28,213 nt of DNA from positions 1 to 28,213 of the IMG/VR virus record IMGVR_UViG_3300034812_000171; one strand, given 5' to 3'. Position 1 is the stretch's first letter. Every line of letters starts with the position of its first letter. Under the pieces are notes generated by a model that saw only the letters and a program-made list of their open reading frames with translations, was not told where the DNA came from and ran no database searches. The position numbers and the translations under genes are program-made. The stretch comes from a virus. This document shows positions 845-28,213 of the stretch, one piece after another.

Positions 845-1690
845 TTATACGGCTTCTCTTACGGTCCACTTGTAGTCGTCCTGGCGTTCCTGTACAGTAG
901 CCCACCACCCTCCAAGGCGTGGCGTGGCGAAGTTCTTCTCGGTAGCCCAGCCCGCGTACCTGTCGCCGAGCTTTTTATAGCTACCAAGGCGGAGGTGGTG
1001 GACCGTTCTTTGCTCGAGGTTCATGGCTTGGGTAATCCGGTCCACCGTCACGGGGAGGTGCCACTTTTGGTGGTCGTGTCCTCGCAGGATAAAGTCTGCG
1101 TCGGGGAAGTCTTTTTGGTCGATGTCCGCGCCCAAGATTCCTTTCGAACGCTTGGCGCCTCCGCCGTACCCGTGGTGGTAGTGGACGTTGAAACGCTTAC
1201 GGCTTGAGCCGTTGCGGTGCGGCGTAACACAAAGCCACCCGGCGTAGCCTCCTACCTCTACGTGTCCGCCGTTGGCGTTGATGATTTGCGCCACCCGGTC
1301 GATGGGGGAAACCATCATGCGCTTCTCTATGTTCGTCTCGTGGTTGCCCTTGGAGATGAACTTGATGACGTCGGCGTACTTGCTCAGCTTCTCGCCCACG
1401 TCTTGGATAACCTCGTCAACGTACACACAGGACTTGTACTCGGGCCTCAGCTCGGCGTAGTTGCCACGTGGATCAAACCGTCCCTGCATCAAATCAAACA
1501 GGTCGCCAAAGATAAACACCCCGGCACCCAGCTCGCGGGCCTCGTCGAGGTGCCTGTGAAGAAGCGAGCGGTCGCACTTCATGGCGTCGTAGTGGATGTC
1601 GGAGATGAACAGGAAGTGTTCCTTGCCTTGTCGCTTTTGGATGTCTACGTCCACGTGGTGAACGGTTCGGCTTTTTCTTAGTAGGTCCAC
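845..1690 (-). CDS. Calcineurin-like metallophosphoesterase
   Basis: All core motifs of the metallophosphoesterase fold are present in order: FISDIHYD (D31, H33), FGDLFD (D63), GNHE (N116, H117), a histidine-rich HYHHGYG (170-176) and RGHDH (203-207). These residues bind the two metal ions in this superfamily. At 281 aa it is a single-domain enzyme. The substrate cannot be read from sequence; phage members are often proposed to act on nucleic acid ends or cyclic nucleotides. The start is GTG at 1690 inside the end of the endolysin gene (13-nt overlap), the only start consistent with a full N-terminal strand before the first motif. It is co-transcribed with the lysis genes, which is an unusual place for a DNA-metabolism enzyme. 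Confidence 0.85.
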   Translation of the reverse strand: MDLLRKSRTVHHVDVDIQKRQGKEHFLFISDIHYDAMKCDRSLLHRHLDEARELGAGVFIFGDLFDLMQGRFDPRGNYAELRPEYKSCVYVDEVIQDVGEKLSKYADVIKFISKGNHETNIEKRMMVSPIDRVAQIINANGGHVEVGGYAGWLCVTPHRNGSSRKRFNVHYHHGYGGGAKRSKGILGADIDQKDFPDADFILRGHDHQKWHLPVTVDRITQAMNLEQRTVHHLRLGSYKKLGDRYAGWATEKNFATPRLGGWWATVQERQDDYKWTVREAV

Positions 1691-2034
1691 AGGGCGTTGG
1701 GGGTTTTGTTGGGGTCCATATCCACGTGTATAAAGTCCTCGCTCACTCCAATGCGGTTAAAGCCCGCGTCGAGCAAAGCCTCGACAAGGAGGAAGCGACG
1801 TCGGCTGTCAGTGATGGCGATGTCCACCGCCCACCCGAGAAGGTGCGACGACTTAGGCGAGCCACCTACGGCGCGGTTGTGTTCGACGCTACGGAAGCCG
1901 GAGGAGATTATCATGGGGTAGCCGTAGATGTCGCGGGCGATGTCGAGTGCCTGCACGACCTCGTGCTCCATGAGCTCCCCGGAGCCAGGACGGTCGGGGC
2001 TCTGGAACTCACTGAGCTTGAAATACTTGTACAT
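1678..2034 (-). CDS. Peptidase M15 family endolysin
   Basis: This 118-aa protein has the M15 zinc peptidase signature: SGFRS (45-49), SSHLLGWAVDI (H64 and D71 as zinc ligands) and FIHVDMD (H103). The family cleaves peptide bonds in the peptidoglycan stem or cross-bridge, and compact single-domain M15 proteins are common phage endolysins. There is no signal peptide, so it would depend on a holin for access to the wall. The chosen ATG at 2034 lies 1 nt after the stop of the holin-like gene; longer in-frame versions would overlap that gene heavily. Confidence 0.85.
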   Translation of the reverse strand: MYKYFKLSEFQSPDRPGSGELMEHEVVQALDIARDIYGYPMIISSGFRSVEHNRAVGGSPKSSHLLGWAVDIAITDSRRRFLLVEALLDAGFNRIGVSEDFIHVDMDPNKTPNALWTY

Positions 2035-2035
2035 A

Positions 2036-2239
2036 TCAGAGACCTTTCTTGGCGAGGAGAATCTTGAGCTCGTGTATGCCTTCGACGCATTCCTTGAGCA
2101 TGGTCTTAAGTTCGCTTTGGTCATTCTCTAGGCGGTAGACCCTTCCCTTGAGTTTGGCTACCTCGGAATTCAAGGATACCCAAACGCCGACCACGCCCAC
2201 AAGGGCAGGAATCAAAGTTGTCAACGCGTCGATGTTCAT
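2036..2239 (-). CDS. Holin-like protein with one membrane span and coiled coil
   Basis: The 67-aa protein has one N-terminal hydrophobic helix (residues 5-23, LTTLIPALVGVVGVWVSL) followed by a charged coiled-coil-like region to the end (EVAKLKGRVYRLENDQSELK). This topology resembles small phage holin or hemolysin XhlA-type proteins. It lies directly before the M15 endolysin (1 nt gap), as in many holin-endolysin pairs. The ATG at 2239 overlaps the metalloprotease stop (ATGA, 2236-2239), so its translation is probably coupled to that gene. The holin role is inferred from size, topology and position. Confidence 0.75.
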   Translation of the reverse strand: MNIDALTTLIPALVGVVGVWVSLNSEVAKLKGRVYRLENDQSELKTMLKECVEGIHELKILLAKKGL

Positions 2240-4074
2240 TGCTTGTATAGTTTCTGCACCCCGTCCGGTCCGGCTACGATGTAGAACCCCGTCGGCAGGT
2301 CGTCGAGTGGTCGGTAGACTCGGCGCCCCATGAGGTCGTAGACTTGTGTCTCCGCTGGGAGGGTGCGGGTTGGTAGGTTGAAAGGCTCGGGGGTACACTC
2401 GCTTCCCCATACACCGAGGAACACGAGCAGGTCGTTGACGTCTACGGCGCCGTCGCCGTCAAGGTCGTACTCACAAAACGACGTGCAACCGTATTGAGTC
2501 AAGAAGAGGAGCAGGTCGCCGTTCCCTACTTGCCCGTTGCCGTCGAAGTCGTAGGGGCACTCGCTTACGTTTACGCAGAACTCGAACACACGGCTCTCCC
2601 AGTTGCCGGAAATGTCCGTCTCGACAAGCACGCCGTCGACCGTTACGGACAGCTCGCCCCCGTAGGGCATCCCGTCGCCCCCAGCGTCGTAGAAGGTAAG
2701 CGTGTAGCACCCCGGGAATAGGCACGCGTCATAGCCGTACTCCACAATCCCTGCCGTATAGCCGTCCCCGGAAAGGACCACGCCGTTCGGTCCTTCCAAA
2801 ACCCACGACGTCTCGTTAGCAAAGAAGCCCGTGGTGAGGTCCATGGCAAACAGCGCCCCCGGTTCGTAGCTTACAAAACCCGTGAGGGTGTCGTTCGCGG
2901 GGTACTGGTCAAGCGGACTGACAAGGGACACCAAGAACTCGCCGTCGAGCGGTACGTTCTCAAACGTCACCGTGTAGGATTCACCTGGCAGGAGGTCGTA
3001 GACGTCCTCGCTGTACGTCGTGCCGTCCGATTCAAGGACGACGGACGCGGTACCTAGCGAAAGGTTGCCTAGCACGTCGACGTAGGTGGTAAGGTTTTGG
3101 GTTTGTTGGCAGAAGGTCTCCTCGTATTCTAGCCCGTTTAAGGCGATGTCGTAGTCGACGGGAGGGAGACACCCCGGAGAGTCAAGGAGCGAGCTCCTAG
3201 GCCCCTGCAAAAGGGCGTGCATACGCTCGGCTTGTCCTTGCGTAAACGCATCCCGGCAAGCGTCCGAGGTGTAGTCCATGTAGTTCGTTACCATGGCCCC
3301 CTCGCAAGCGGGTGAAACGCACGACTGGTTGGGGGTGGTGGGTGGCGTGTCGCAGACCATGTCGCCCTGCGTCTCGCAGTTGGTCTCGGCGCCACACGAG
3401 AACGTGTTGAAGAAGGTATGCTGAAGGCTGAGGTAGTGGCCGAGCTCGTGCGTTAGGGTCTTGCCTTGCGTGAACGGGGTGACTTGTACGCGGTTCGCCA
3501 GAATAACCACGCCGTCCAGACAGTTCCCTGTCGGTCCGGTGTAGGCGTACCCTTGAATCCCTCCTCCCCCGTTGTTGCCTTCTATCTCCGGCACGACGTA
3601 GACGTTCACGTACTCCGCGACGTCCCAACACGCAATGCTCTTGACCTCAAAGTCCGGCGCCCCTCCGCTCGTGCTACTGATGGCGATGCCCTCGGCTACG
3701 AACGCGGGGATGCCCGAGAGGTCGTGGCGTGTTATGCCGTTGGACGGGCTCCCATCGGGGCCACGTTGCGCCAGGCAGAAGTCTATCTTCGTGTCCACCC
3801 CTATACCGTCGCCACTTCCTCCCGGCTCCTTCCTGAATTGTGCGTTAACCTCGGCGAGCGTCTCCTGTATTCTTTCGGCTGTGATGTTTGATCCATCCCC
3901 TACGGGCTCGCCTAGGTGCATGACGTGGAAGACTATCGGGAGCGTCTTCTCCTCTTCGTCCACGAGGTCCGCTTGGAAGGCAGGCAACCCCATAAAGTAC
4001 GGGTTAAAACTTACGCACTGGCTTAGGAGGTTGTGGCTTACGAGGTAGAGGGTTAGGAGTAGGGCGCTTCTCAT
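2236..4074 (-). CDS. Secreted M43-family metalloprotease with dockerin-like repeats and T9SS sorting domain
   Basis: A 612-aa multidomain exported enzyme. Residues 1-19 form a signal peptide. The catalytic domain (about 45-300) carries HELGHYLSLQH (H209, E210, H213, H219) and the Met-turn NYMDYTSDAC (264-273), as in M43 cytophagalysin/pappalysin-type zinc proteases; the usual Gly of the third motif position is Ser216. A beta-rich region follows (to 500, with paired cysteines and YDAGGDGMPYGG), then two EF-hand-like calcium loops of dockerin type (D509-D520 and D537-D548). The C-terminus has VYDLMGRRV, LPTGFYIV and final QKLYKQ, typical of the T9SS type A sorting domain. Such proteins are normally bacterial secreted enzymes. 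Here the gene lies between the head-tail adaptor and the holin, and overlaps the holin gene by ATGA. Infected-cell secretion or surface display is inferred, not shown. Confidence 0.9.
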   Translation of the reverse strand: MRSALLLTLYLVSHNLLSQCVSFNPYFMGLPAFQADLVDEEEKTLPIVFHVMHLGEPVGDGSNITAERIQETLAEVNAQFRKEPGGSGDGIGVDTKIDFCLAQRGPDGSPSNGITRHDLSGIPAFVAEGIAISSTSGGAPDFEVKSIACWDVAEYVNVYVVPEIEGNNGGGGIQGYAYTGPTGNCLDGVVILANRVQVTPFTQGKTLTHELGHYLSLQHTFFNTFSCGAETNCETQGDMVCDTPPTTPNQSCVSPACEGAMVTNYMDYTSDACRDAFTQGQAERMHALLQGPRSSLLDSPGCLPPVDYDIALNGLEYEETFCQQTQNLTTYVDVLGNLSLGTASVVLESDGTTYSEDVYDLLPGESYTVTFENVPLDGEFLVSLVSPLDQYPANDTLTGFVSYEPGALFAMDLTTGFFANETSWVLEGPNGVVLSGDGYTAGIVEYGYDACLFPGCYTLTFYDAGGDGMPYGGELSVTVDGVLVETDISGNWESRVFEFCVNVSECPYDFDGNGQVGNGDLLLFLTQYGCTSFCEYDLDGDGAVDVNDLLVFLGVWGSECTPEPFNLPTRTLPAETQVYDLMGRRVYRPLDDLPTGFYIVAGPDGVQKLYKQ

Positions 4075-4113
4075 TGAGCCAGTTCTTGAGGAGTGTGATG
4101 TTCTGTTTTCTTG

Positions 4114-4680
4114 TCATTCGCTGAAGATGTACCGGGCGAGGTCGGGGTCCATCTGTCCCGTCCCCGTGGAGATGGTCATGCCGTTTTGGTAGTAGACGGT
4201 CTTGTCCGGTGCCATGTCGGGTGACTGGTTGCTGTTGTACTCCGGAAACAGGCTAGAGTTTTGGCAGAGGTAGTCGACCATGCGGGCCGTATAGAACTGG
4301 GCGTTCTGCCGTGCGTTCTCAATCTCGCGGTGCAGGTCGGCTTGTGAGATGGGTGCCGTGCTGTCTGACGTGCGGATGACAAGCCCACCGTTGTCGAGCT
4401 TGACGTACAGCGTAGGCAACACCTCCACCATGGTCCACCAGCACGTAGCCTTGCGGACGTAGGTGTCTAGGAGGGTGGCGTAGTCGCCCGCCGGACCGCT
4501 TCCTGCGATGTCGCTCTTGAGCTTGTTCAAGAGGTCCGTCCCAAGGAACTGCTGGAGGTACTTGTCCTGTGCTAGAATGATGGCAGGGGCGAGGACTTGG
4601 TCCTCTACGCTTCCGTTAATGGGGGTGATGCGCTTGAGGTAGTCGGCGTTGACAAATAGGACTTCTGCTGTGAGTGCCAT
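4114..4680 (-). CDS. Head-tail adaptor-like protein
   Basis: This 188-aa mostly helical protein begins MALTAEVLFV and contains a long N-terminal segment (SVEDQVLAPAIILAQDKYL, FLGTDLLNKL) resembling the head-tail connector-like proteins encoded next to portals in Bacteroidota phages (DUF6712-like, from memory). It starts immediately after the portal stop with no spacer. It probably joins the portal ring to the tail during assembly. The C-terminal 40 residues are polar and less family-like. The gap to the metalloprotease gene is 39 nt with no clear signal. Confidence 0.6.
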   Translation of the reverse strand: MALTAEVLFVNADYLKRITPINGSVEDQVLAPAIILAQDKYLQQFLGTDLLNKLKSDIAGSGPAGDYATLLDTYVRKATCWWTMVEVLPTLYVKLDNGGLVIRTSDSTAPISQADLHREIENARQNAQFYTARMVDYLCQNSSLFPEYNSNQSPDMAPDKTVYYQNGMTISTGTGQMDPDLARYIFSE

Positions 4681-19572: not shown

Positions 19573-20727
19573 TTACCCGATGGCGTAGGAGCCGTAGTTC
19601 GGGTTCGTTTGATTCCAAGTAACAGCGTAGCGCGAGGCGTCTACGAAGTGGTTGAACGCATCGACGGGCTCGTTGAGCTGGCGCCCGTTCTTGTCCTCCT
19701 TGTACTTGTAGTTGCGTAGCTCCTTGATGCCGTTAACGCTCCGCTCGGTAATGAGCAGGGGACGCGACCGGAGAAAGTCGATGCCGGAGCGTACCGAGTC
19801 CGGACCCTTCCTGGCGGGGTGTACGTTGAACCCGTGGCCGTGTATCTCGTCAATCGACTTGGGCTCGGCTGAGTCGGCGACCACCATGGCCTTGCCTATC
19901 TCAGCGTCGCGTAGCGTTTGCGCAATGGCTGCGTTGGTGAGTCCGGTGGCGTAGCACACCTCGTCGAGGCAGAAGCCATGCCCGTCCGTGTAGACCTTTA
20001 CGATAGCGGTGGGGTCGTTGGTGTATCCGAAGTCGAGGCCGAGGTTGAGGAGCCTCCATCCGTCCGGCACTTGGGGTACCTGCTTCCAGTGCGTGAGGAT
20101 AGTCGAGCGGGACACCCCCCTCTCGCCTAGACCGTACACCCTCCAGTAGTCGGGGTCGGCTTCCTGTAGGCGTTCAATCTCTCGGACGGTTGCCTGGCCT
20201 AGGAAGGGGTTGTCCTTGTAGGTAGTCTGGAAGAACTCGTGGTCGTCTCGTGTAAGGACGTGGTCGTATATCCAGTGGAACTCGTCGGAGGGGTTGTAGT
20301 CGATGATGGCCCGCCCGGTGGTTCGTAGCATCAGTTGCCTCCAGTCCTCGAGTGCCAGCTCGTTGGCTTCGTTGACAAAGAGGATGTCGCGCTTCCTACC
20401 CCGCACCTTCTGCGGTTGGTCTACGGATATGAACTCGACCAGGTTGCCGAAGAGGAGGTAGGTTGCTTGGGACTTGTTGTGGAGGTCGGGGTTGTAGATG
20501 TCCTCGCGTTCGAGTATCTCAAAGAAGTCACGCATGCACGACGCACGGATGGCGGGGAAGGTCTTACGAGCAATGGTAATGACCGCCCCACTGTTCTCGT
20601 TGCGGTGGCACAGCTCGATGAGGGCGGTGAGGATGGAGTAGGTCTTGCCGGAGCGCGTCCCGCCTTGATGCACTTGGACCTTGGCCGTGCTATTCTTGAC
20701 GTGGTAGTATGTGGCGGGCTGTCTCAA
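19573..20727 (-). CDS. terL: Terminase large subunit
   Basis: The ATPase motifs are clear: Walker A GGTRSGKT (22-29, numbering from the TTG) and Walker B ILFVNEANE (115-123). The nuclease domain begins at LGLDFGYTNDPTA with D232, followed by MVVADSAEPKSID and a final VDAFNHFVDASRYAV, which supply the metal-binding acidic residues. It resembles the PBSX/XtmB-type group. The enzyme pumps DNA into the procapsid and cuts it. I chose the TTG at 20727, which overlaps the preceding methyltransferase stop as TTGA and leaves 21 residues before Walker A, as usual for relatives; a GTG at 20769 is possible but overlaps the other gene by 46 nt. Confidence 0.9.
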   Translation of the reverse strand: MRQPATYYHVKNSTAKVQVHQGGTRSGKTYSILTALIELCHRNENSGAVITIARKTFPAIRASCMRDFFEILEREDIYNPDLHNKSQATYLLFGNLVEFISVDQPQKVRGRKRDILFVNEANELALEDWRQLMLRTTGRAIIDYNPSDEFHWIYDHVLTRDDHEFFQTTYKDNPFLGQATVREIERLQEADPDYWRVYGLGERGVSRSTILTHWKQVPQVPDGWRLLNLGLDFGYTNDPTAIVKVYTDGHGFCLDEVCYATGLTNAAIAQTLRDAEIGKAMVVADSAEPKSIDEIHGHGFNVHPARKGPDSVRSGIDFLRSRPLLITERSVNGIKELRNYKYKEDKNGRQLNEPVDAFNHFVDASRYAVTWNQTNPNYGSYAIG

Positions 20728-21365
20728 AACATGCGGAGCTGGGCCTTGTGCCGTTCCAAACGCTCGCACGCGCCCTTGTAGTAGTCCTCGTCAAGCTCGC
20801 ACCCGACAAGGTCGAAGCCGAGGTTGTGGCAAGCGATGGCAATTGAGCCACTGCCTAGGTGCGTGTCAAGGATGCGGTCGCCCTCTTTCGCGTAATTCAT
20901 GAGAAGCCACTCGTACAGCTTGACGGGTTTTTGAGTTGGGTGTATCGGGCTTTCTTTCCAAAGTTGAGACCTGTGCAAATTGAACGCCCGCGGAACCCTG
21001 TCAAAAGAAGTATAGGCTATCTCAAGGTCGCCATAGGTCAAGCCCCTTTGCACCTTATCCCAAACAATCCATCCTCGCGTGTTGTCTAGGTGCTCCACGA
21101 AGTAGTTGGCGCCCCATATGATTTGGTCTTGTGCAACTCGCTTGACTTCTTGAAAATACCCAGCGCATGGCTTTTGGTCCCAGGCTTTGCGCTCGTATGC
21201 CTTTCTTAACCTGTTCCCCTTTGGTTTGCTTTTTCCGGTGCTAATTGCTTCACCCACGCCGTCCATGCCTATCCCATAGGGGGGGTCTACAATAGCAAGC
21301 TCAAAGGCGTTGTCCTCGCACGTCGCGAGGTACTCCATGCAGTCGCCGTGCCGGAGGTCAATCAT
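20724..21365 (-). CDS. DNA methyltransferase (N6-adenine/N4-cytosine type) between the terminase genes
   Basis: The 213-aa enzyme has DPPYG (27-31, catalytic motif IV), HPTQKP (142-147) and DTHLGSGSIAIAC (167-179, AdoMet-binding motif I), the order of the beta group of amino-methyltransferases. The target-recognition region lies between 32 and 141. The ATG at 21365 overlaps the small terminase stop (ATGA, 21362-21365), and its own stop overlaps the large terminase start (TTGA). The recognition site cannot be inferred. No partner restriction enzyme is visible, so it is an orphan methyltransferase, probably protecting or marking phage DNA near the time of packaging. Confidence 0.9.
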   Translation of the reverse strand: MIDLRHGDCMEYLATCEDNAFELAIVDPPYGIGMDGVGEAISTGKSKPKGNRLRKAYERKAWDQKPCAGYFQEVKRVAQDQIIWGANYFVEHLDNTRGWIVWDKVQRGLTYGDLEIAYTSFDRVPRAFNLHRSQLWKESPIHPTQKPVKLYEWLLMNYAKEGDRILDTHLGSGSIAIACHNLGFDLVGCELDEDYYKGACERLERHKAQLRMF

Positions 21366-21724
21366 GATACGGTCGAATCGTCGGATACGAACCACGAGAG
21401 GGGCTTCTTCTCGGCCACCTCAATCTCCTGGCGCTCGACGTACCCACGCCCTTTGCCTTTGGTCTTCAGGAAGAAGATGGTCGCAGCAGGGTTGCCCTCT
21501 TTGATGAGCTTGTGAAGGTGGCTCTCTGCGAAGTCGAGGGTGCGGTTCTCGATGCCCTTAACGGCCTCCCGGTACTCGGGGTCGTCCTTAATCCATTGGT
21601 AGTGTGTGGTGCGCCCTACCCCCACGGCGTTGCAAGCTGTCGTCACGATGCCAAGCGAACGCTCAAGGGCTTCGAGCATTGCCTCTTTTTTGGTGTTCGT
21701 CCTGTTCTGTTTTACTGCTTCCAT
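21362..21724 (-). CDS. terS: Terminase small subunit (homeodomain-like)
   Basis: The 120-aa protein begins with a helix-turn-helix (ALERSLGIVTTACNAVGVGR, then TTHYQWIKDDPEYREAV) of the phBC6A51-type small terminase group and continues ENRTLDFAESHLHKLIKEGN and AATIFFLKTKGKGRGY, all typical. It binds the packaging site and recruits the large subunit. The ATG at 21724 overlaps the ParB-methyltransferase end by 13 nt. The large subunit is not next to it; a methyltransferase gene intervenes. Confidence 0.8.
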   Translation of the reverse strand: MEAVKQNRTNTKKEAMLEALERSLGIVTTACNAVGVGRTTHYQWIKDDPEYREAVKGIENRTLDFAESHLHKLIKEGNPAATIFFLKTKGKGRGYVERQEIEVAEKKPLSWFVSDDSTVS

Positions 21725-22881
21725 AGCTCTGCTTTTTTACCTGTGAAGTCCTCCCACCGCTTGACGATGACGTCGCAGTATTTAGGGTCGAGTTCCATGT
21801 TGTAGCAAATCCTTCCTGTCTGTTCTGAAGCAATCAAAGTAGACCCACTCCCTCCGAAAGGTTCGTAAACAAGACCCTTGAGCGGTGCGCTGTTTTTAAT
21901 TGCGCGTGCTGGGAGGCTTGTCGGTTTTTGCGTTGGGTGCAAGTAGTCGCTTCGGTTGTCTCTTTTTAATTGCCAAACGTCGCTGGCTTCGTCTTCTGTT
22001 CTGCCTCCGAACCAGTTGTTGAGACCACCGCCCCCTGCTTTGTAGCCGTGGAAGATTATCTCGTATTGGTTGTGGTAGCCGTTTGGCTTCATGACGTGGC
22101 TTTCCTTTACCCAAATCAAATGGCGTGGGAGTTGCCTACAAAATCTCTCAAAGAGTTTGGCATATAGGCCAATGTTTCCCTCGCCTCCACAAAAGTACAG
22201 ACGCGCGCTTTCCTTCGTTGCTGTTGAAACCGCAAGGTCAAAAGAGAACGGTATGGCCGTTTGGGTAAGGTCTCCCGCGATTGTGCTGTTGTTTTTGCCT
22301 CCTTGAATGTTCACGCCGTACGGTGGGTCGGTGAAAACCATGTCGGCCTTATTGCCATCCATGAGGCGTTGCACGTCCTCGGCTTTGGTTGAGTCCCCAC
22401 ACAAGAGGCGGTGGTCTCCCAAGAGCCAAAGGTCGCCGGGTTTGGTTGTAGGCTCCTCGGGTGCTTCAGGTACTTCGTCGGGGTCGGTTAGTCCTTCAGT
22501 CTCATCTTCAAGCATGGGAACCTCTAGACCCCAGTCGTTCAGCTCGTCGGGTTCCCACTCGTTGGCGAGCATATCCCAGTCCCACTCACCGAAGGCGAGG
22601 TTGTCTTTGATGATGAACTCTTTGTTCTTGGCTTCGTCCCAGGAGGCCACGTAGACGGGCACCTCCTTGAGCCCTGCCTGCATCGCTGCCTTGAGGCGCA
22701 TGTTGCCACCTAGGACGACGTAGTCGGGGTTCACTACAATGGGACGTGCTTCGAGCATCTCCGGAAACTCCCGGAGGCTTTTGACTAGCTTCTCTAGTTG
22801 GTCCTTGCGAATCGCCCGGGGGTTATTCGGATTCGTCTTGAGTTTGTTGGTCGCGGTAAGCGTCGGCTGCGGTGAGTACAT
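21712..22881 (-). CDS. ParB-like domain fused to DNA methyltransferase
   Basis: The N-terminal 1-100 is a ParB/sulfiredoxin-type domain (TNPNNPRAI at 16-24, RPIVVNPDYVVLGGNMRLKA at 46-65). The C-terminal part is an amino-methyltransferase with TDPPYGV (184-190), HPTQKP (315-320) and EPFGGSGSTLI (340-350), again in the beta-group order. Such ParB-methylase fusions are frequent in phages and act as orphan DNA methyltransferases. I chose the ATG at 22881 (389 aa); a longer reading to 22947 lies in the upstream gene. It overlaps the 77-aa gene by 59 nt and the small terminase by 13 nt. The base modified (adenine N6 or cytosine N4) is not certain. Confidence 0.85.
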   Translation of the reverse strand: MYSPQPTLTATNKLKTNPNNPRAIRKDQLEKLVKSLREFPEMLEARPIVVNPDYVVLGGNMRLKAAMQAGLKEVPVYVASWDEAKNKEFIIKDNLAFGEWDWDMLANEWEPDELNDWGLEVPMLEDETEGLTDPDEVPEAPEEPTTKPGDLWLLGDHRLLCGDSTKAEDVQRLMDGNKADMVFTDPPYGVNIQGGKNNSTIAGDLTQTAIPFSFDLAVSTATKESARLYFCGGEGNIGLYAKLFERFCRQLPRHLIWVKESHVMKPNGYHNQYEIIFHGYKAGGGGLNNWFGGRTEDEASDVWQLKRDNRSDYLHPTQKPTSLPARAIKNSAPLKGLVYEPFGGSGSTLIASEQTGRICYNMELDPKYCDVIVKRWEDFTGKKAELWKQ

Positions 22882-23056
22882 TGCGTAGGGTTTCGCGGAT
22901 GTGGTAGTCAGAGATAGCGAGGTTGAGGAGTATTTCCCAGCTCTCAAGTTTTTGGTAGAACGCTCCGAAGTCGGCGGTCTCCCCGTGTTGCTTCATGGTG
23001 AAGACAAGGAAGTCGTCGCTCTCATTGAGCATTCTTTTAACCTTTCGTAGTGTCAT
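22823..23056 (-). CDS. Hypothetical 77-aa helical protein
   Basis: A small acidic, helix-rich protein (MTLRKVKRMLNESDDF, FYQKLESWEILLNLAISDYH, ending QQTQDESE). No known domain was recognised. The ATG at 23056 overlaps the stop of the DnaA-domain-like gene (ATGA, 23053-23056), so the two are probably co-translated and may work together. It may be a partner of that DNA-binding protein, but this is only a guess from the coupling. Confidence 0.65.
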   Translation of the reverse strand: MTLRKVKRMLNESDDFLVFTMKQHGETADFGAFYQKLESWEILLNLAISDYHIRETLRNVLTAADAYRDQQTQDESE

Positions 23057-25299: not shown

Positions 25300-25903
25300 T
25301 GTGTTGGTTTTTGAGTGGGAAGAAACCGCGCCACCCGTTGGCGAGGCTCTGCCCGATTATACGAACGGCGGTTGGTTCGTCTCCGCCGGAGAGGTTTTGT
25401 AGTTGGTGGAGGCTTGCCTGCTCGCTGGCGGAGCTCTTGAACTTGAAGCCATGCTCGTCGCGCTTGTAGTCCTTCCAGCTTTGCCAGGCTACCGAGAACT
25501 CCTTGGAGTCAAACGGCAACACCACCCCCTTCTTCTTTACTGTGTTTTCTTTTGTTCTTTCTCTTGTATTAGTAGAGGTATCATTTGGGGATGCTGCCTC
25601 CCCATTTTGGGTAGTCTGCCTCCCCATTTTGGGGATGCAGCCTGCACGAGTAGTGACGCAACGTACTCTGCCATTGAACGTTACGTCCACAAACCCACGC
25701 TCTGCGAGCTTGCGTAGGCTCCTGCCGATGGTGTTGCGTGAGATGCCATACTCCGCTTGAATGGTTACGTTGGACTTCATGAAGCTCCGCCCGTTGCCCG
25801 TGAAGCTGTCTATCTCTGCGAGCAGGGCTTTCTCCACAAGGGTGAGGTCTCTGTCTAGCCATACCTTGGCGGGTATCCATACGCCCTTAAAGTTTCTTTC
25901 CAT
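25205..25903 (-). CDS. Winged-helix replication initiator (replisome organiser type)
   Basis: The N-terminal 1-85 is a winged helix-turn-helix (LTLVEKALLAEIDSFTGNGR, then SNVTIQAEYGISRNTIGRSL and KLAERGFVDVTFNGRVRCV), as in phage replisome organisers. Residues about 134-198 form the conserved C-terminal domain (FSVAWQSWKDYKRDEHGFKF, AVRIIGQSLANGWRGFFPLK). The linker between them is encoded by 22-bp iteron-like repeats (25573-25638). The layout resembles lambda O, which binds iterons inside its own gene. It starts at the ATG at 25903, overlapping the methyltransferase end by 17 nt. Function is inferred from domain type and context. Confidence 0.75.
   Translation of the reverse strand: MERNFKGVWIPAKVWLDRDLTLVEKALLAEIDSFTGNGRSFMKSNVTIQAEYGISRNTIGRSLRKLAERGFVDVTFNGRVRCVTTRAGCIPKMGRQTTQNGEAASPNDTSTNTRERTKENTVKKKGVVLPFDSKEFSVAWQSWKDYKRDEHGFKFKSSASEQASLHQLQNLSGGDEPTAVRIIGQSLANGWRGFFPLKNQHNESRANRGPSDGSLLTAHLRKLADDSGQSLG
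25573..25638. repeat. Iteron-like 22-bp tandem repeats in the initiator gene
   Basis: Copies at 25617-25638 and 25595-25616 share TGCCTCCCCATTTTGGG; a third, half-degenerate copy lies at 25573-25594 (right 11 bases match). Each core has a CCCCA/TGGGG inverted repeat around TTT. The period of 22 is not a multiple of 3, so the repeats are read in different frames and are probably kept for their DNA sequence. A replication origin is inferred. Confidence 0.55.
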
Positions 25904-26720
25904 CTTCGTGTGCTTGAATTGCTTTGAATATCTGCAAAGCTACTTGAGGAACTATTGCGTTCCCGTAGGCTTTGACGGCTTCGCGCTTCCACTTTGAAAC
26001 GGTGAGACCGTCCAGTCGTTCGGGAAGCCCATCATCTCCCCCGCAAATAGGGGCGAAAGTTGGGAAGGTTTGCCAGGCTTCAGACCTGGGCAAATCCCGC
26101 TGTATAGGAGTTGGCTCAAGAGGCAGTTGTACTTGTTTCCTGGAGGATCGTTTGGGTTGTTCTTCCCCATCTCCGTCCGAAGGGCGTGGCGTGCCTTGTA
26201 CCTCTCCGGTGGCTCGTCCACCTGTACGGCAAGGGGCGTGAGCAACAATCCAGACTCGAGGCCGGCGGTGTGGGGCTCCGACCCCTGAAGCTGGAAGTAC
26301 AAACGGTTGTACCTCGTACCCTTCAGCTTCCAAGCTAGCGCACACCTCCTCGAAGACCATTCCTCCATGCCAACCAACAAGGCCGAGAACGTTTTCGCCC
26401 ACGACGTAGCGCGGGGCGCATTCTCGAATAACGCGCAACATCTCCGGCCACAGGTGGCGCTCGTCTTCGTTGCCTTTTTGTAATCCTGCGACGGAGTAGG
26501 GCTGGCAAGGGAACCCTCCTGTGAGGATATCAACTCGTCCAGCGTAAGCTGTCGCGTCGAGTTCTTTGATGTCTCCATGTTGTATAGCGTTTGGAAAATG
26601 GTGTTTTAAGACTTGGCGGGGGAACTCTTCCCACTCGCAGTTGAAGAGGTTTGTCCACCCCATCCACTCGGCAGCGAGGTCGAAGCCCCCTATCCCTGAA
26701 AAGAGGGAGGCATGAGTCAT
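25887..26720 (-). CDS. dcm: DNA cytosine-5 methyltransferase
   Basis: The 277-aa protein has the ordered cytosine-C5 motifs: SLFSGIGGFDLA (5-16, AdoMet binding), GGFPCQPYSVAG (68-79) with catalytic C72, GENV (108-111), HRRPRVWIVA (151-160) and AYGNAIVPQVA (251-261). It transfers a methyl group to C5 of cytosine in a target set by the short recognition region (about 165-240). No cognate restriction gene is near, so it is orphan, consistent with protection against host restriction. The ATG at 26720 overlaps the small HTH gene stop (ATGA, 26717-26720). A second ORF is nested in another frame at 25952-26578. Confidence 0.92.
   Translation of the reverse strand: MTHASLFSGIGGFDLAAEWMGWTNLFNCEWEEFPRQVLKHHFPNAIQHGDIKELDATAYAGRVDILTGGFPCQPYSVAGLQKGNEDERHLWPEMLRVIRECAPRYVVGENVLGLVGWHGGMVFEEVCASLEAEGYEVQPFVLPASGVGAPHRRPRVWIVAHAPCRTGGRATGEVQGTPRPSDGDGEEQPKRSSRKQVQLPLEPTPIQRDLPRSEAWQTFPTFAPICGGDDGLPERLDGLTVSKWKREAVKAYGNAIVPQVALQIFKAIQAHEDGKKL
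25952..26578 (-). CDS. Overlapping ORF nested in the cytosine methyltransferase gene (208 aa)
   Basis: Lies wholly inside the methyltransferase gene on the same strand, in the +1 frame, covering that protein's residues 48-256. It starts METSKNSTRQ and contains LASPTPSQDY, ALAWKLKGTRYNRLYFQLQG, ESGLLLTPLAVQ and near the end FAGEMMGFPNDWTVSPFQSG and KPSKPTGTQ. I recall this same pattern (WKxKGTxxNRxYFQL, then EMMGFPxxWTxLPF) in ORFs next to or overlapping phage Dcm genes, often annotated only as hypothetical. Length alone is not proof, since long shadow ORFs exist in this window, but the recognisable motifs make it likely to be translated. Function unknown; it may modulate or complement the methyltransferase. 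Confidence 0.6.
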   Translation of the reverse strand: METSKNSTRQLTLDELISSQEGSLASPTPSQDYKKATKTSATCGRRCCALFENAPRATSWAKTFSALLVGMEEWSSRRCALAWKLKGTRYNRLYFQLQGSEPHTAGLESGLLLTPLAVQVDEPPERYKARHALRTEMGKNNPNDPPGNKYNCLLSQLLYSGICPGLKPGKPSQLSPLFAGEMMGFPNDWTVSPFQSGSAKPSKPTGTQ

Positions 26721-28064: not shown

Positions 28065-28213
28065 AACGTTTTTATTTTTGTGGTAAATACAAAGCCCTTC
28101 GCCTCAATCTTCGGACGGCACACCTCCCATACGCGAGGCGAACCCCAAAACCAACGGGTGGGGCTGTCGCGCTCCGGGTGTTGGCTGTCGATGGTCCAGC
28201 GGTATCCGATACT
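28061..28213 (-). CDS. Partial C-terminal end of an upstream gene
   Basis: Open from the right edge for 50 codons and ending in TGA at 28061-28063, which overlaps the next ATG. The visible end reads SIGYRWTIDSQHPERDSPTR and later WEVCRPKIEAKGFVF, with several Trp and Cys residues. No family is recognised, and the start lies outside the window. Confidence 0.55.
   Translation of the reverse strand, partial: SIGYRWTIDSQHPERDSPTRWFWGSPRVWEVCRPKIEAKGFVFTTKIKTL

What the first reader, a model, noticed from the sequence alone, without database searches (positions are those of the whole stretch)
2236..4074. Phage gene for a T9SS-targeted metalloprotease in the lysis operon
Seen: signal peptide, M43-type HELGHYLSLQH and NYMDYT, two dockerin-like calcium loops, and a C-terminal VYDLMGRRV...GFYIV...QKLYKQ sorting tail. 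Known: the T9SS sorting domain directs proteins across the outer membrane of Bacteroidota by a bacterial machine. Inferred: the phage makes an exported protease through the host's own T9SS during late infection, translationally coupled (ATGA) to the holin. Possible roles are degrading surface layers to free virions, altering host surface receptors against superinfection, or nutrient release. I know of no described phage that uses this route.
Basis: partly seen in the sequence, partly recalled or inferred. Interest (0 to 1): 0.88.

Follow-up and report, generated by a model that had tools for sequence, protein, structure and literature searches.

The report
Phage proteases tagged for host export
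A small marine phage carries, beside its lysis genes, a protein-cutting enzyme that ends in what looks like a shortened form of the tag its bacterial host uses to push proteins out through the outer membrane; relatives of it sit in several other phage groups, usually next to a second tagged protein.

Summary
The gene is real (minus strand, 2236-4074, 612 aa) and not a chimera: two contigs from other metagenomes carry it at about 92% DNA identity, dN/dS about 0.1. It encodes a secreted pappalysin-like (M43) zymogen: signal peptide, invariant Cys20 (probable cysteine switch), HELGHYLSLQH, NYMDY, two beta domains, GC-type dockerin, loose linker, 42-residue tail. No curated T9SS model passes on this tail. 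Support that it is a short type-A T9SS signal: an HMM of cellular T9SS domains picks out 46 of 62 such tails at E<1 and almost no shuffled ones; motifs match published short signals; AlphaFold gives three strands; relatives carry curated type-B T9SS domains in the same slot. Against: the likely host genomes show no clear tail of this short type. Of 63 complete slots in related phages 39 are empty and 23 hold M43, a type-B protein or both. In phages without the window's portal, M43 has a type-B neighbour in 23 of 24 loci. The M43s are nearly phage-only and have moved between phage lineages. Phage T9SS cargo was already described in 2019-2020, so the novelty claim fails; the protease, the pair, the A/B exchange and the lysis-operon slot look new. 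Surface shaving late in infection is my preferred, unproven role.

The parts
2236..4074 (-). M43 (pappalysin-like) metallopeptidase gene, 612 aa
   Evidence: orthologues L002, L003
4021..4074 (-). signal-peptide-like segment, residues 1-18
   Evidence: sequence; heuristic; helix 2-17 in the model
3949..4020 (-). putative pro-segment, residues 19-42, with Cys20 as candidate cysteine switch
   Evidence: Cys20 invariant in 33 of 33 aligned rows; segment 18-32 has pLDDT under 50; mirolysin Cys23. End point is inferred
3175..3948 (-). catalytic domain, about residues 43-300; zinc motif 3418-3450, Met-turn NYMDY 3271-3285
2572..3162 (-). two beta domains, about residues 305-400 (CARDB-like) and 405-501
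   Evidence: strands in the model; Foldseek match to a CARDB domain, 3idu, E 3.6e-4; weak Pfam CARDB, over cut-off in the homologue L103
2395..2559 (-). GC-type dockerin, residues 506-560, two calcium loops
   Evidence: NF041540 25.6 bits, cut-off 29; PDB dockerin matches in the profile search
2239..2394 (-). linker (residues 561-570) and short T9SS type-A-like signal (571-612)
   Evidence: pLDDT under 50 in 561-570, strands 577-579, 596-602, 605-611; window tail 8.8 bits to the cellular CTD HMM; motif residues D580 G583 R584 V586 G596 Y598 K608
4004..4117 (-). conserved micro-ORF, 37 aa, ATGA overlap with the DUF6712 stop, overlaps the 5' end of the M43 gene out of frame
   Evidence: found by a simple ATG search in 20 of 25 loci examined
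4114..4680 (-). DUF6712 protein, upstream border of the slot
   Evidence: Pfam PF20459 E 6.8e-23
2036..2239 (-). small holin-like protein, 67 aa, downstream border of the slot
   Evidence: weak PHROG holin match on the longer ORF; 65-100% identical in relatives where found
1678..2124 (-). M15 endolysin (true start possibly further downstream, about 2034)
   Evidence: PF08291 6.6e-18; phrog_894 endolysin 5.9e-28
845..1690 (-). metallophosphoesterase-like protein of the same operon

Best explanation
The window is a nearly complete small tailed-phage genome of a Bacteroidota (probably Flavobacteriales) host. Its operon portal - DUF6712 - micro-ORF - M43 - holin-like - M15 endolysin - phosphoesterase contains a cargo slot before the holin-like gene. 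The cargo is a pappalysin-like protease made as a zymogen: Sec exports it (signal peptide), Cys20 keeps the zinc blocked, a short type-A C-terminal signal is taken up by the host T9SS, and the enzyme becomes active outside with calcium. SHOWN by computation: conserved catalytic machinery, purifying selection, syntenic orthologues, enrichment of a cellular T9SS signal model in these tails, curated type-B T9SS domains in the same slot of relatives, exchange of the family between phage lineages. INFERRED: export through the T9SS, cleavage of the tail, latency and activation, late timing. Most likely role (my estimate 0.35-0.4, best of several): it shaves proteins from the surface of the infected cell and its debris late in infection, destroying receptors so that progeny are not lost by re-adsorption and the cell is not superinfected; it works like a receptor-destroying enzyme. 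The confidence below is for the molecular part (exported protease via T9SS), not for the role.
For: M43 identity: Pfam; profile to ulilysin 6.6e-47 and mirolysin 1.7e-43; Foldseek top hit mirolysin 4.1e-16. Cys20 invariant in 33 of 33, as mirolysin Cys23 (PMC6949598, passages). Selection: dN/dS 0.11 and 0.086. Tail: HMM from 56 cellular type-A domains against 3283 distinct C-termini of mechanically called viral ORFs: 46 of 62 M43 tails at E<1, 33 of 33 type-B tails, 8 of 3188 others, all 8 of which carry T9SS-like ends (4 full type-A, 4 type-B missed by my regex); at 7.5 bits 42 of 62 real against 1 of 6200 shuffled tails; window 8.8 bits, E 0.23. Motif fit and three-strand fold as in P. intermedia short signals. 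Type-B domains in the slot: CHU_C 50.7, 55.0, 53.2 bits (cut-off 27) in 3 of 3 tested; TIGR04131 34.4, 40.0, 37.3 (cut-off 35). Slot census. Pairing in other phages 23 of 24; endolysin within 4 kb 12 of 24. SprA in 6 of 6 candidate host-type genomes.
Against: No curated T9SS model passes on the window tail, and TIGR04183 sub-cut-off hits are unspecific (13 of 14 control genomes ring). Short signals are reported only from Prevotella intermedia (PMC11969387), and a profile of the phage tails finds only three weak partial matches (E 0.01-0.04) in six candidate host-type genomes, so the host's use of short tails is not shown. In those genomes GC-type dockerins end the protein without a tail (9 of 10 loci read), and some phage M43s also end after the dockerin (L238, L241, L244), so the dockerin could be the true anchoring signal and the tail may not be needed. 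The host is not identified. The role is untested; M43 sometimes stands without its type-B partner and most slots are empty, so it is dispensable.
Confidence: 0.72

Rival explanations
1. The enzyme is exported and acts on surface layers or outer-membrane proteins to help lysis or detach virions from matrix, as an accessory to the endolysin, rather than destroying receptors.
For: Gene sits between DUF6712 and the holin-like gene and M15 endolysin, with start-stop overlaps; in 12 of 24 loci of other lineages an endolysin lies within 4 kb, e.g. an amidase beside L206, L211, L212, L217.
Against: 39 of 63 slots are empty, so lysis does not need it; no background rate for the endolysin neighbourhood was measured; other phages have no endolysin near.
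Confidence: 0.25
2. It is a nutrient or competition factor: a public-good protease that frees amino acids or attacks neighbours, like cargo speculations made for Cryophage.
For: Cellular relatives are large secreted T9SS proteases; Cryophage cargo includes hydrolases (PMC7468147, passages).
Against: Position in a late, lysis-linked operon of a small genome without a recognised integrase among the proteins scanned leaves little time to profit.
Confidence: 0.15
3. Secretion does not use the T9SS: the dockerin or another mechanism anchors or exports it, and the tail only resembles a T9SS signal.
For: Curated models fail; host-type proteins end in the GC-type dockerin; dockerin_GC is called an anchoring domain by NCBIfam; tail profile barely found in host-type genomes.
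Against: Tail test with shuffles, motif conservation, type-B signals in the same slot and in neighbours.
Confidence: 0.2
4. It is a virion or tail protein with a protease domain that acts at entry.
For: Neighbours upstream are structural (portal, DUF6712).
Against: Signal-peptide-like start and T9SS-like ends, which only 2 of 377 ORFs matching other window genes show for the start; dispensable in 39 of 63 slots.
Confidence: 0.06
5. Host DNA joined to a phage contig by misassembly.
For: Nearest cellular homologues are ordinary secreted bacterial proteases.
Against: Syntenic copies in two other metagenomes, many relatives in the same slot, closest phage homologues 95% and closest cellular ones listed at 46% or less.
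Confidence: 0.01

Closest known systems
Mirolysin (Tannerella forsythia) and ulilysin: unicellular pappalysins, family M43
   Same: Catalytic motifs, Met-turn, calcium-rich secreted zymogen plan, N-terminal Cys matching the mirolysin cysteine switch
   Different: 26-32% identity in the structural alignments; extra beta domains, dockerin and a short tail; encoded by a phage. That mirolysin itself is T9SS cargo is recalled, not taken from a call
Cryophage T9SS cargo genes (PMC7468147, passages read)
   Same: Variable phage genes with T9SS signals, proposed hijack of the host T9SS
   Different: Cargo there: endoglucanase, GH39, PA14 protein with type A domains; here an M43 protease with a short tail, type-B partner, slot in a lysis operon
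crAss-like phages with BACON and T9SS sorting-domain proteins (PMC6949934, passages read)
   Same: T9SS sorting-domain proteins in Bacteroidota phages, near head genes
   Different: Carbohydrate-binding BACON repeats, no protease or lysis slot in the passages seen
Short C-terminal signals of Prevotella intermedia T9SS cargo (PMC11969387, passages read)
   Same: 40-55 residues, motifs B (Gly, basic), D (GxY, Ile) and E (Lys), one three-stranded sheet after a flexible linker
   Different: Bacterial, other order; consensus cleavage site PT/GI not seen in the phage tails
NCBIfam NF041540 GC-type dockerin proteins
   Same: Dockerin of 506-560 scores 25.6 bits; six candidate host-type genomes hold 16-46 matches each to the dockerin-plus-tail query
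   Different: Below the cut-off of 29; host copies read end at the dockerin

Membership tests
Peptidase M43 (pappalysins) | HExxHxxGxxH-type zinc motif and family profile | tested here: met
   HELGHYLSLQH; Pfam 69.1 bits, cut-off 23. The usual Gly of the recalled long motif is Ser/Leu here, but ulilysin-like proteins share the spacing
Peptidase M43 (pappalysins) | Met-turn | tested here: met
   N264, M266, Y268 invariant in 33 rows
Peptidase M43 (pappalysins) | cysteine-switch pro-segment (unicellular pappalysins) | tested here: inconclusive
   Cys20 invariant in 33 of 33, but the segment is poorly modelled and zinc binding not testable
T9SS type A cargo | TIGR04183 or PF18962 over the curated cut-off | tested here: not met
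   No hit in the window
T9SS type A cargo, short-signal class | motifs B, D, E in 40-55 C-terminal residues; three strands after a linker | tested here: met
T9SS type A cargo | Sec signal peptide | tested here: inconclusive
   Crude heuristic only
T9SS type A cargo | T9SS-dependent export and tail cleavage | not testable with these tools
   Needs an experiment
Phage-encoded T9SS cargo (Cryophage kind) | phage context, variable between relatives | tested here: met
   the partner type-B proteins pass PF13585 in 3 of 3 tested
GC-type dockerin (NF041540) | score over cut-off | tested here: not met
   25.6 bits against 29

The most novel reading that the evidence does not exclude
A phage-specific two-part export module - a latent pappalysin with a type-A-like tail plus a type-B T9SS protein whose N-terminal domain was not found in 299 genomes of the candidate host order - moves between phage lineages and plugs into their lysis regions, where it remodels the surface of the dying cell as a receptor-destroying or superinfection-blocking device.
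Probability: 0.3. Interest if true: 0.82.

Novelty: new variant of a known kind. Interest (0 to 1): 0.63.

Why it matters
If true, several groups of marine Bacteroidota phages use the host's T9SS to place proteases and surface proteins outside the infected cell, at a fixed place in the lysis region. That makes phage control of the cell exterior in a major marine phylum directly testable, gives natural examples of minimal T9SS signals, and adds latent extracellular proteases to the list of phage gene products that reach sea water.

Tried and rejected
Chimeric host DNA: rejected. Lipoprotein reading of Cys20: rejected from the sequence, since Gln precedes it in the window and the Cys position varies (alignment). 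Curated T9SS models on the window tail: failed. Host search by the phage portal: 2 of 399 genomes of the order of G013 (45% and 30% identity), the better one on a 3.5 kb contig that ends before the slot, so the host stays unproven. Tail profile in six candidate host-type genomes: three weak partial matches only. Structure of the type-B partner: pLDDT 58.6, not used. A clustering of M43-bearing loci by shared genes put 144 of 152 loci in one component by chaining and was not informative. tblastn of M43 in 50,697 phage records: one weak match, 40% over 100 residues; of the partner: five records, matching only its type-B end (three) or short repeats (two). tRNAs in the window: none. Nearest viral folds are mostly giant-virus ulilysin-like proteins, not pursued.

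Dropped or special rows: the slot census uses distinct DUF6712 contexts (81), of which 18 were cut before the next gene and left out, giving 63. L219 was labelled other+type-B there because its M43 ORF starts early; searches show the M43, so I count it as M43+type-B (7, not 6). L247's M43 is split into two ORFs and was left as it is. The loci come from capped best-80 lists and one M43-driven scan, so the proportions are not prevalences. In one search, four loci listed as 'other phages' (L276, L288, L301, L306) belong to the window family by their MPE match; they do not enter the 24 loci used for the pairing count.

Full report
OBSERVATION. The 612-aa ORF is on the minus strand at 2236-4074. 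Pfam M43 passes; a profile of 33 phage homologues matches ulilysin (6.6e-47) and mirolysin (1.7e-43) in the PDB. AlphaFold (mean pLDDT 77.7, pTM 0.58) gives a catalytic domain, two beta domains, a dockerin, a linker with pLDDT under 50 at 561-570 and a final three-stranded piece; Foldseek's best match is mirolysin (4.1e-16). Cys20 is invariant in 33 of 33 rows, at the place where mirolysin has its cysteine switch (PMC6949598, passages).

NOT A CHIMERA. The window is an IMG/VR record of 28,213 bases. L002 runs from portal through the M43 gene to the lysis genes and on past window position 1 to window position 28,213 with 18 bases between, so the window is probably a nearly complete, permuted genome. 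M43 of L002 and L003 is 92.6% and 91.6% identical in DNA, dN/dS 0.11 and 0.086.

THE SLOT. Scans of IMG/VR with portal, capsid, phosphoesterase, DUF6712 and M43 queries gave several hundred loci from best-80 lists. Among 63 distinct complete slots between DUF6712 and the holin-like or M15 gene, 39 are empty, 13 hold M43 alone, 7 M43 plus a type-B protein (6 by script, L219 added by hand), 3 a type-B protein alone (L026, L045, L294) and 1 two small other ORFs (L053). M43 identity to the window is 27-95% while DUF6712 neighbours are 71-97% and portals 61-93% in the M43-bearing loci. The type-B proteins pass Pfam CHU_C (50.7, 55.0, 53.2 bits, cut-off 27); TIGR04131 passes in 2 of those 3.

THE TAIL. 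Curated type-A models do not pass on the window tail. I built an HMM from 56 C-termini with a YPNP-type motif in the cellular loci and searched 3283 distinct viral ORF C-termini (mechanical ORFs, many spurious). At E<1 it hit 46 of 62 M43 ends, 33 of 33 type-B ends and 8 of 3188 others, of which 4 are full-length type-A ends (two of them pass TIGR04183, L244 and L239; L251 scores 19.9, under the cut-off of 23; L263 was not tested) and 4 are type-B ends my regular expression missed. At 7.5 bits or more 42 of 62 real tails and 1 of 6200 shuffled ones remain; the window tail scores 8.8 bits, E 0.23. Tails are related to each other, so these are not independent events. Across 14 tails D, G, R, V, G, Y are invariant, the residues of motifs B and D of the short signals of P. 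intermedia, and a Lys of motif E is nearly so; those signals are 40-55 residues with one three-stranded sheet, and for Hbp35 the last 22 residues suffice (PMC11969387, passages). Against: that paper calls P. intermedia the only reported species with short signals, and six candidate host-type genomes gave only three weak partial matches to the tail profile.

BEYOND THE WINDOW'S FAMILY. The M43 scan found 237 viral stretches encoding a relative, best 80 kept. None of 26 M43-bearing records tested encodes the window's portal, while the three positive controls do; a phrog_2 terminase is seen in 6 of the 26, and L241 has a terminase and portal of other PHROG families. Records may be fragments. In 24 such loci with 3.5 kb on both sides a type-B gene lies within 3 kb in 23 and an endolysin within 4 kb in 12; no background rate was measured. 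In L238, L241 and L244 M43 ends after the dockerin and the type-B gene overlaps it; in L260 both are one protein, but that contig and the 113-152 kb ones (L249, L254, L258) may be other kinds of element. The partner's N-terminal domain is found in 6 of 6 phage records (5 not used to build the profile) and in 0 of 6 candidate host-type genomes and 0 of 299 genomes of the order of G017.

DESCENT. In a tree of 50 viral and 45 cellular catalytic domains a branch with 97% support separates all cellular rows plus two viral ones (L254, L258) from the other 48 viral rows; the label needs 2 changes, shuffled mean 31.8. The best cellular matches listed are 31-46% identical over long stretches (a capped list). 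Window-family M43s are not one clade among viral M43s (18 against 27 rows, AU p 1.2e-5; at least 3 changes forced by supported branches). Some rows counted as other may be short contigs of the window's family, and long branches are present, so the exchange between lineages is likely, not proven.

HOST. T9SS points to Bacteroidota. The nearest cellular M43s with dockerins are from Bacteroidetes and Flavobacteriales MAGs, some with 54-60% G+C like the phage; all six such genomes have SprA and 16-46 matches to the dockerin query. A cultured relative by portal is Nonlabens phage P12024S at 33.7%. One of 399 genomes of that order has a 45% portal.

MECHANISM. Shown: a conserved, selected, secreted-type M43 zymogen in the lysis operon with a T9SS-like end. 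Inferred: Sec export, T9SS passage, activation by calcium and propeptide loss, late timing from operon position. Preferred role: destruction of surface receptors on the dying cell and its debris. Rivals are listed with their odds.

PRIOR ART. Nine searches of the held library brought up two papers with phage T9SS cargo (PMC7468147, PMC6949934; passages read). None of the listings showed a phage M43 protease with a T9SS signal; subscription papers and preprints are not held. Novelty is therefore a new variant of a known kind.

Noticed in passing
window 4004-4117, minus strand: A conserved micro-ORF (MTRxENxxxLKxWL, 23-53 aa) starts on the DUF6712 stop and in the window overlaps the signal-peptide region of the M43 gene out of frame; found by a simple ATG search in 20 of 25 loci.
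   Followed up: partly
L244:9755-12196 (-), L239:10245-12683 (-), L251:10245-12314 (-), L263:5221-7644 (-): A further 689-813 aa secreted-looking phage protein with a full-length type-A T9SS domain (TIGR04183 35.1 and 35.6 bits, cut-off 23, in L244 and L239; 19.9 in L251; L263 not tested by that model), a few kb from the M43 pair.
   Followed up: partly
L260:1035-3890 (+): M43 and type-B T9SS domain fused in one 951-aa protein on a contig with housekeeping-like genes; phage or cellular origin unclear.
   Followed up: no
window 20724-21395, 21712-22947, 25887-26720: Three DNA methyltransferase genes, one with a ParB-like N-terminus, in a 28 kb phage.
   Followed up: no
L053:10384-11072 (+): One slot holds two small ORFs (128 and 101 aa) instead of T9SS cargo.
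   Followed up: no
genomes G013-G018: Candidate host-type Flavobacteriales/Bacteroidetes MAGs hold 16-46 matches each to the dockerin-plus-tail query; 9 of 10 loci read end at the dockerin, which suggests a terminal anchoring domain.
   Followed up: partly
window positions 1 and 28213: The two window ends are 18 bases apart in L002, so the record is probably a nearly complete permuted genome.
   Followed up: partly
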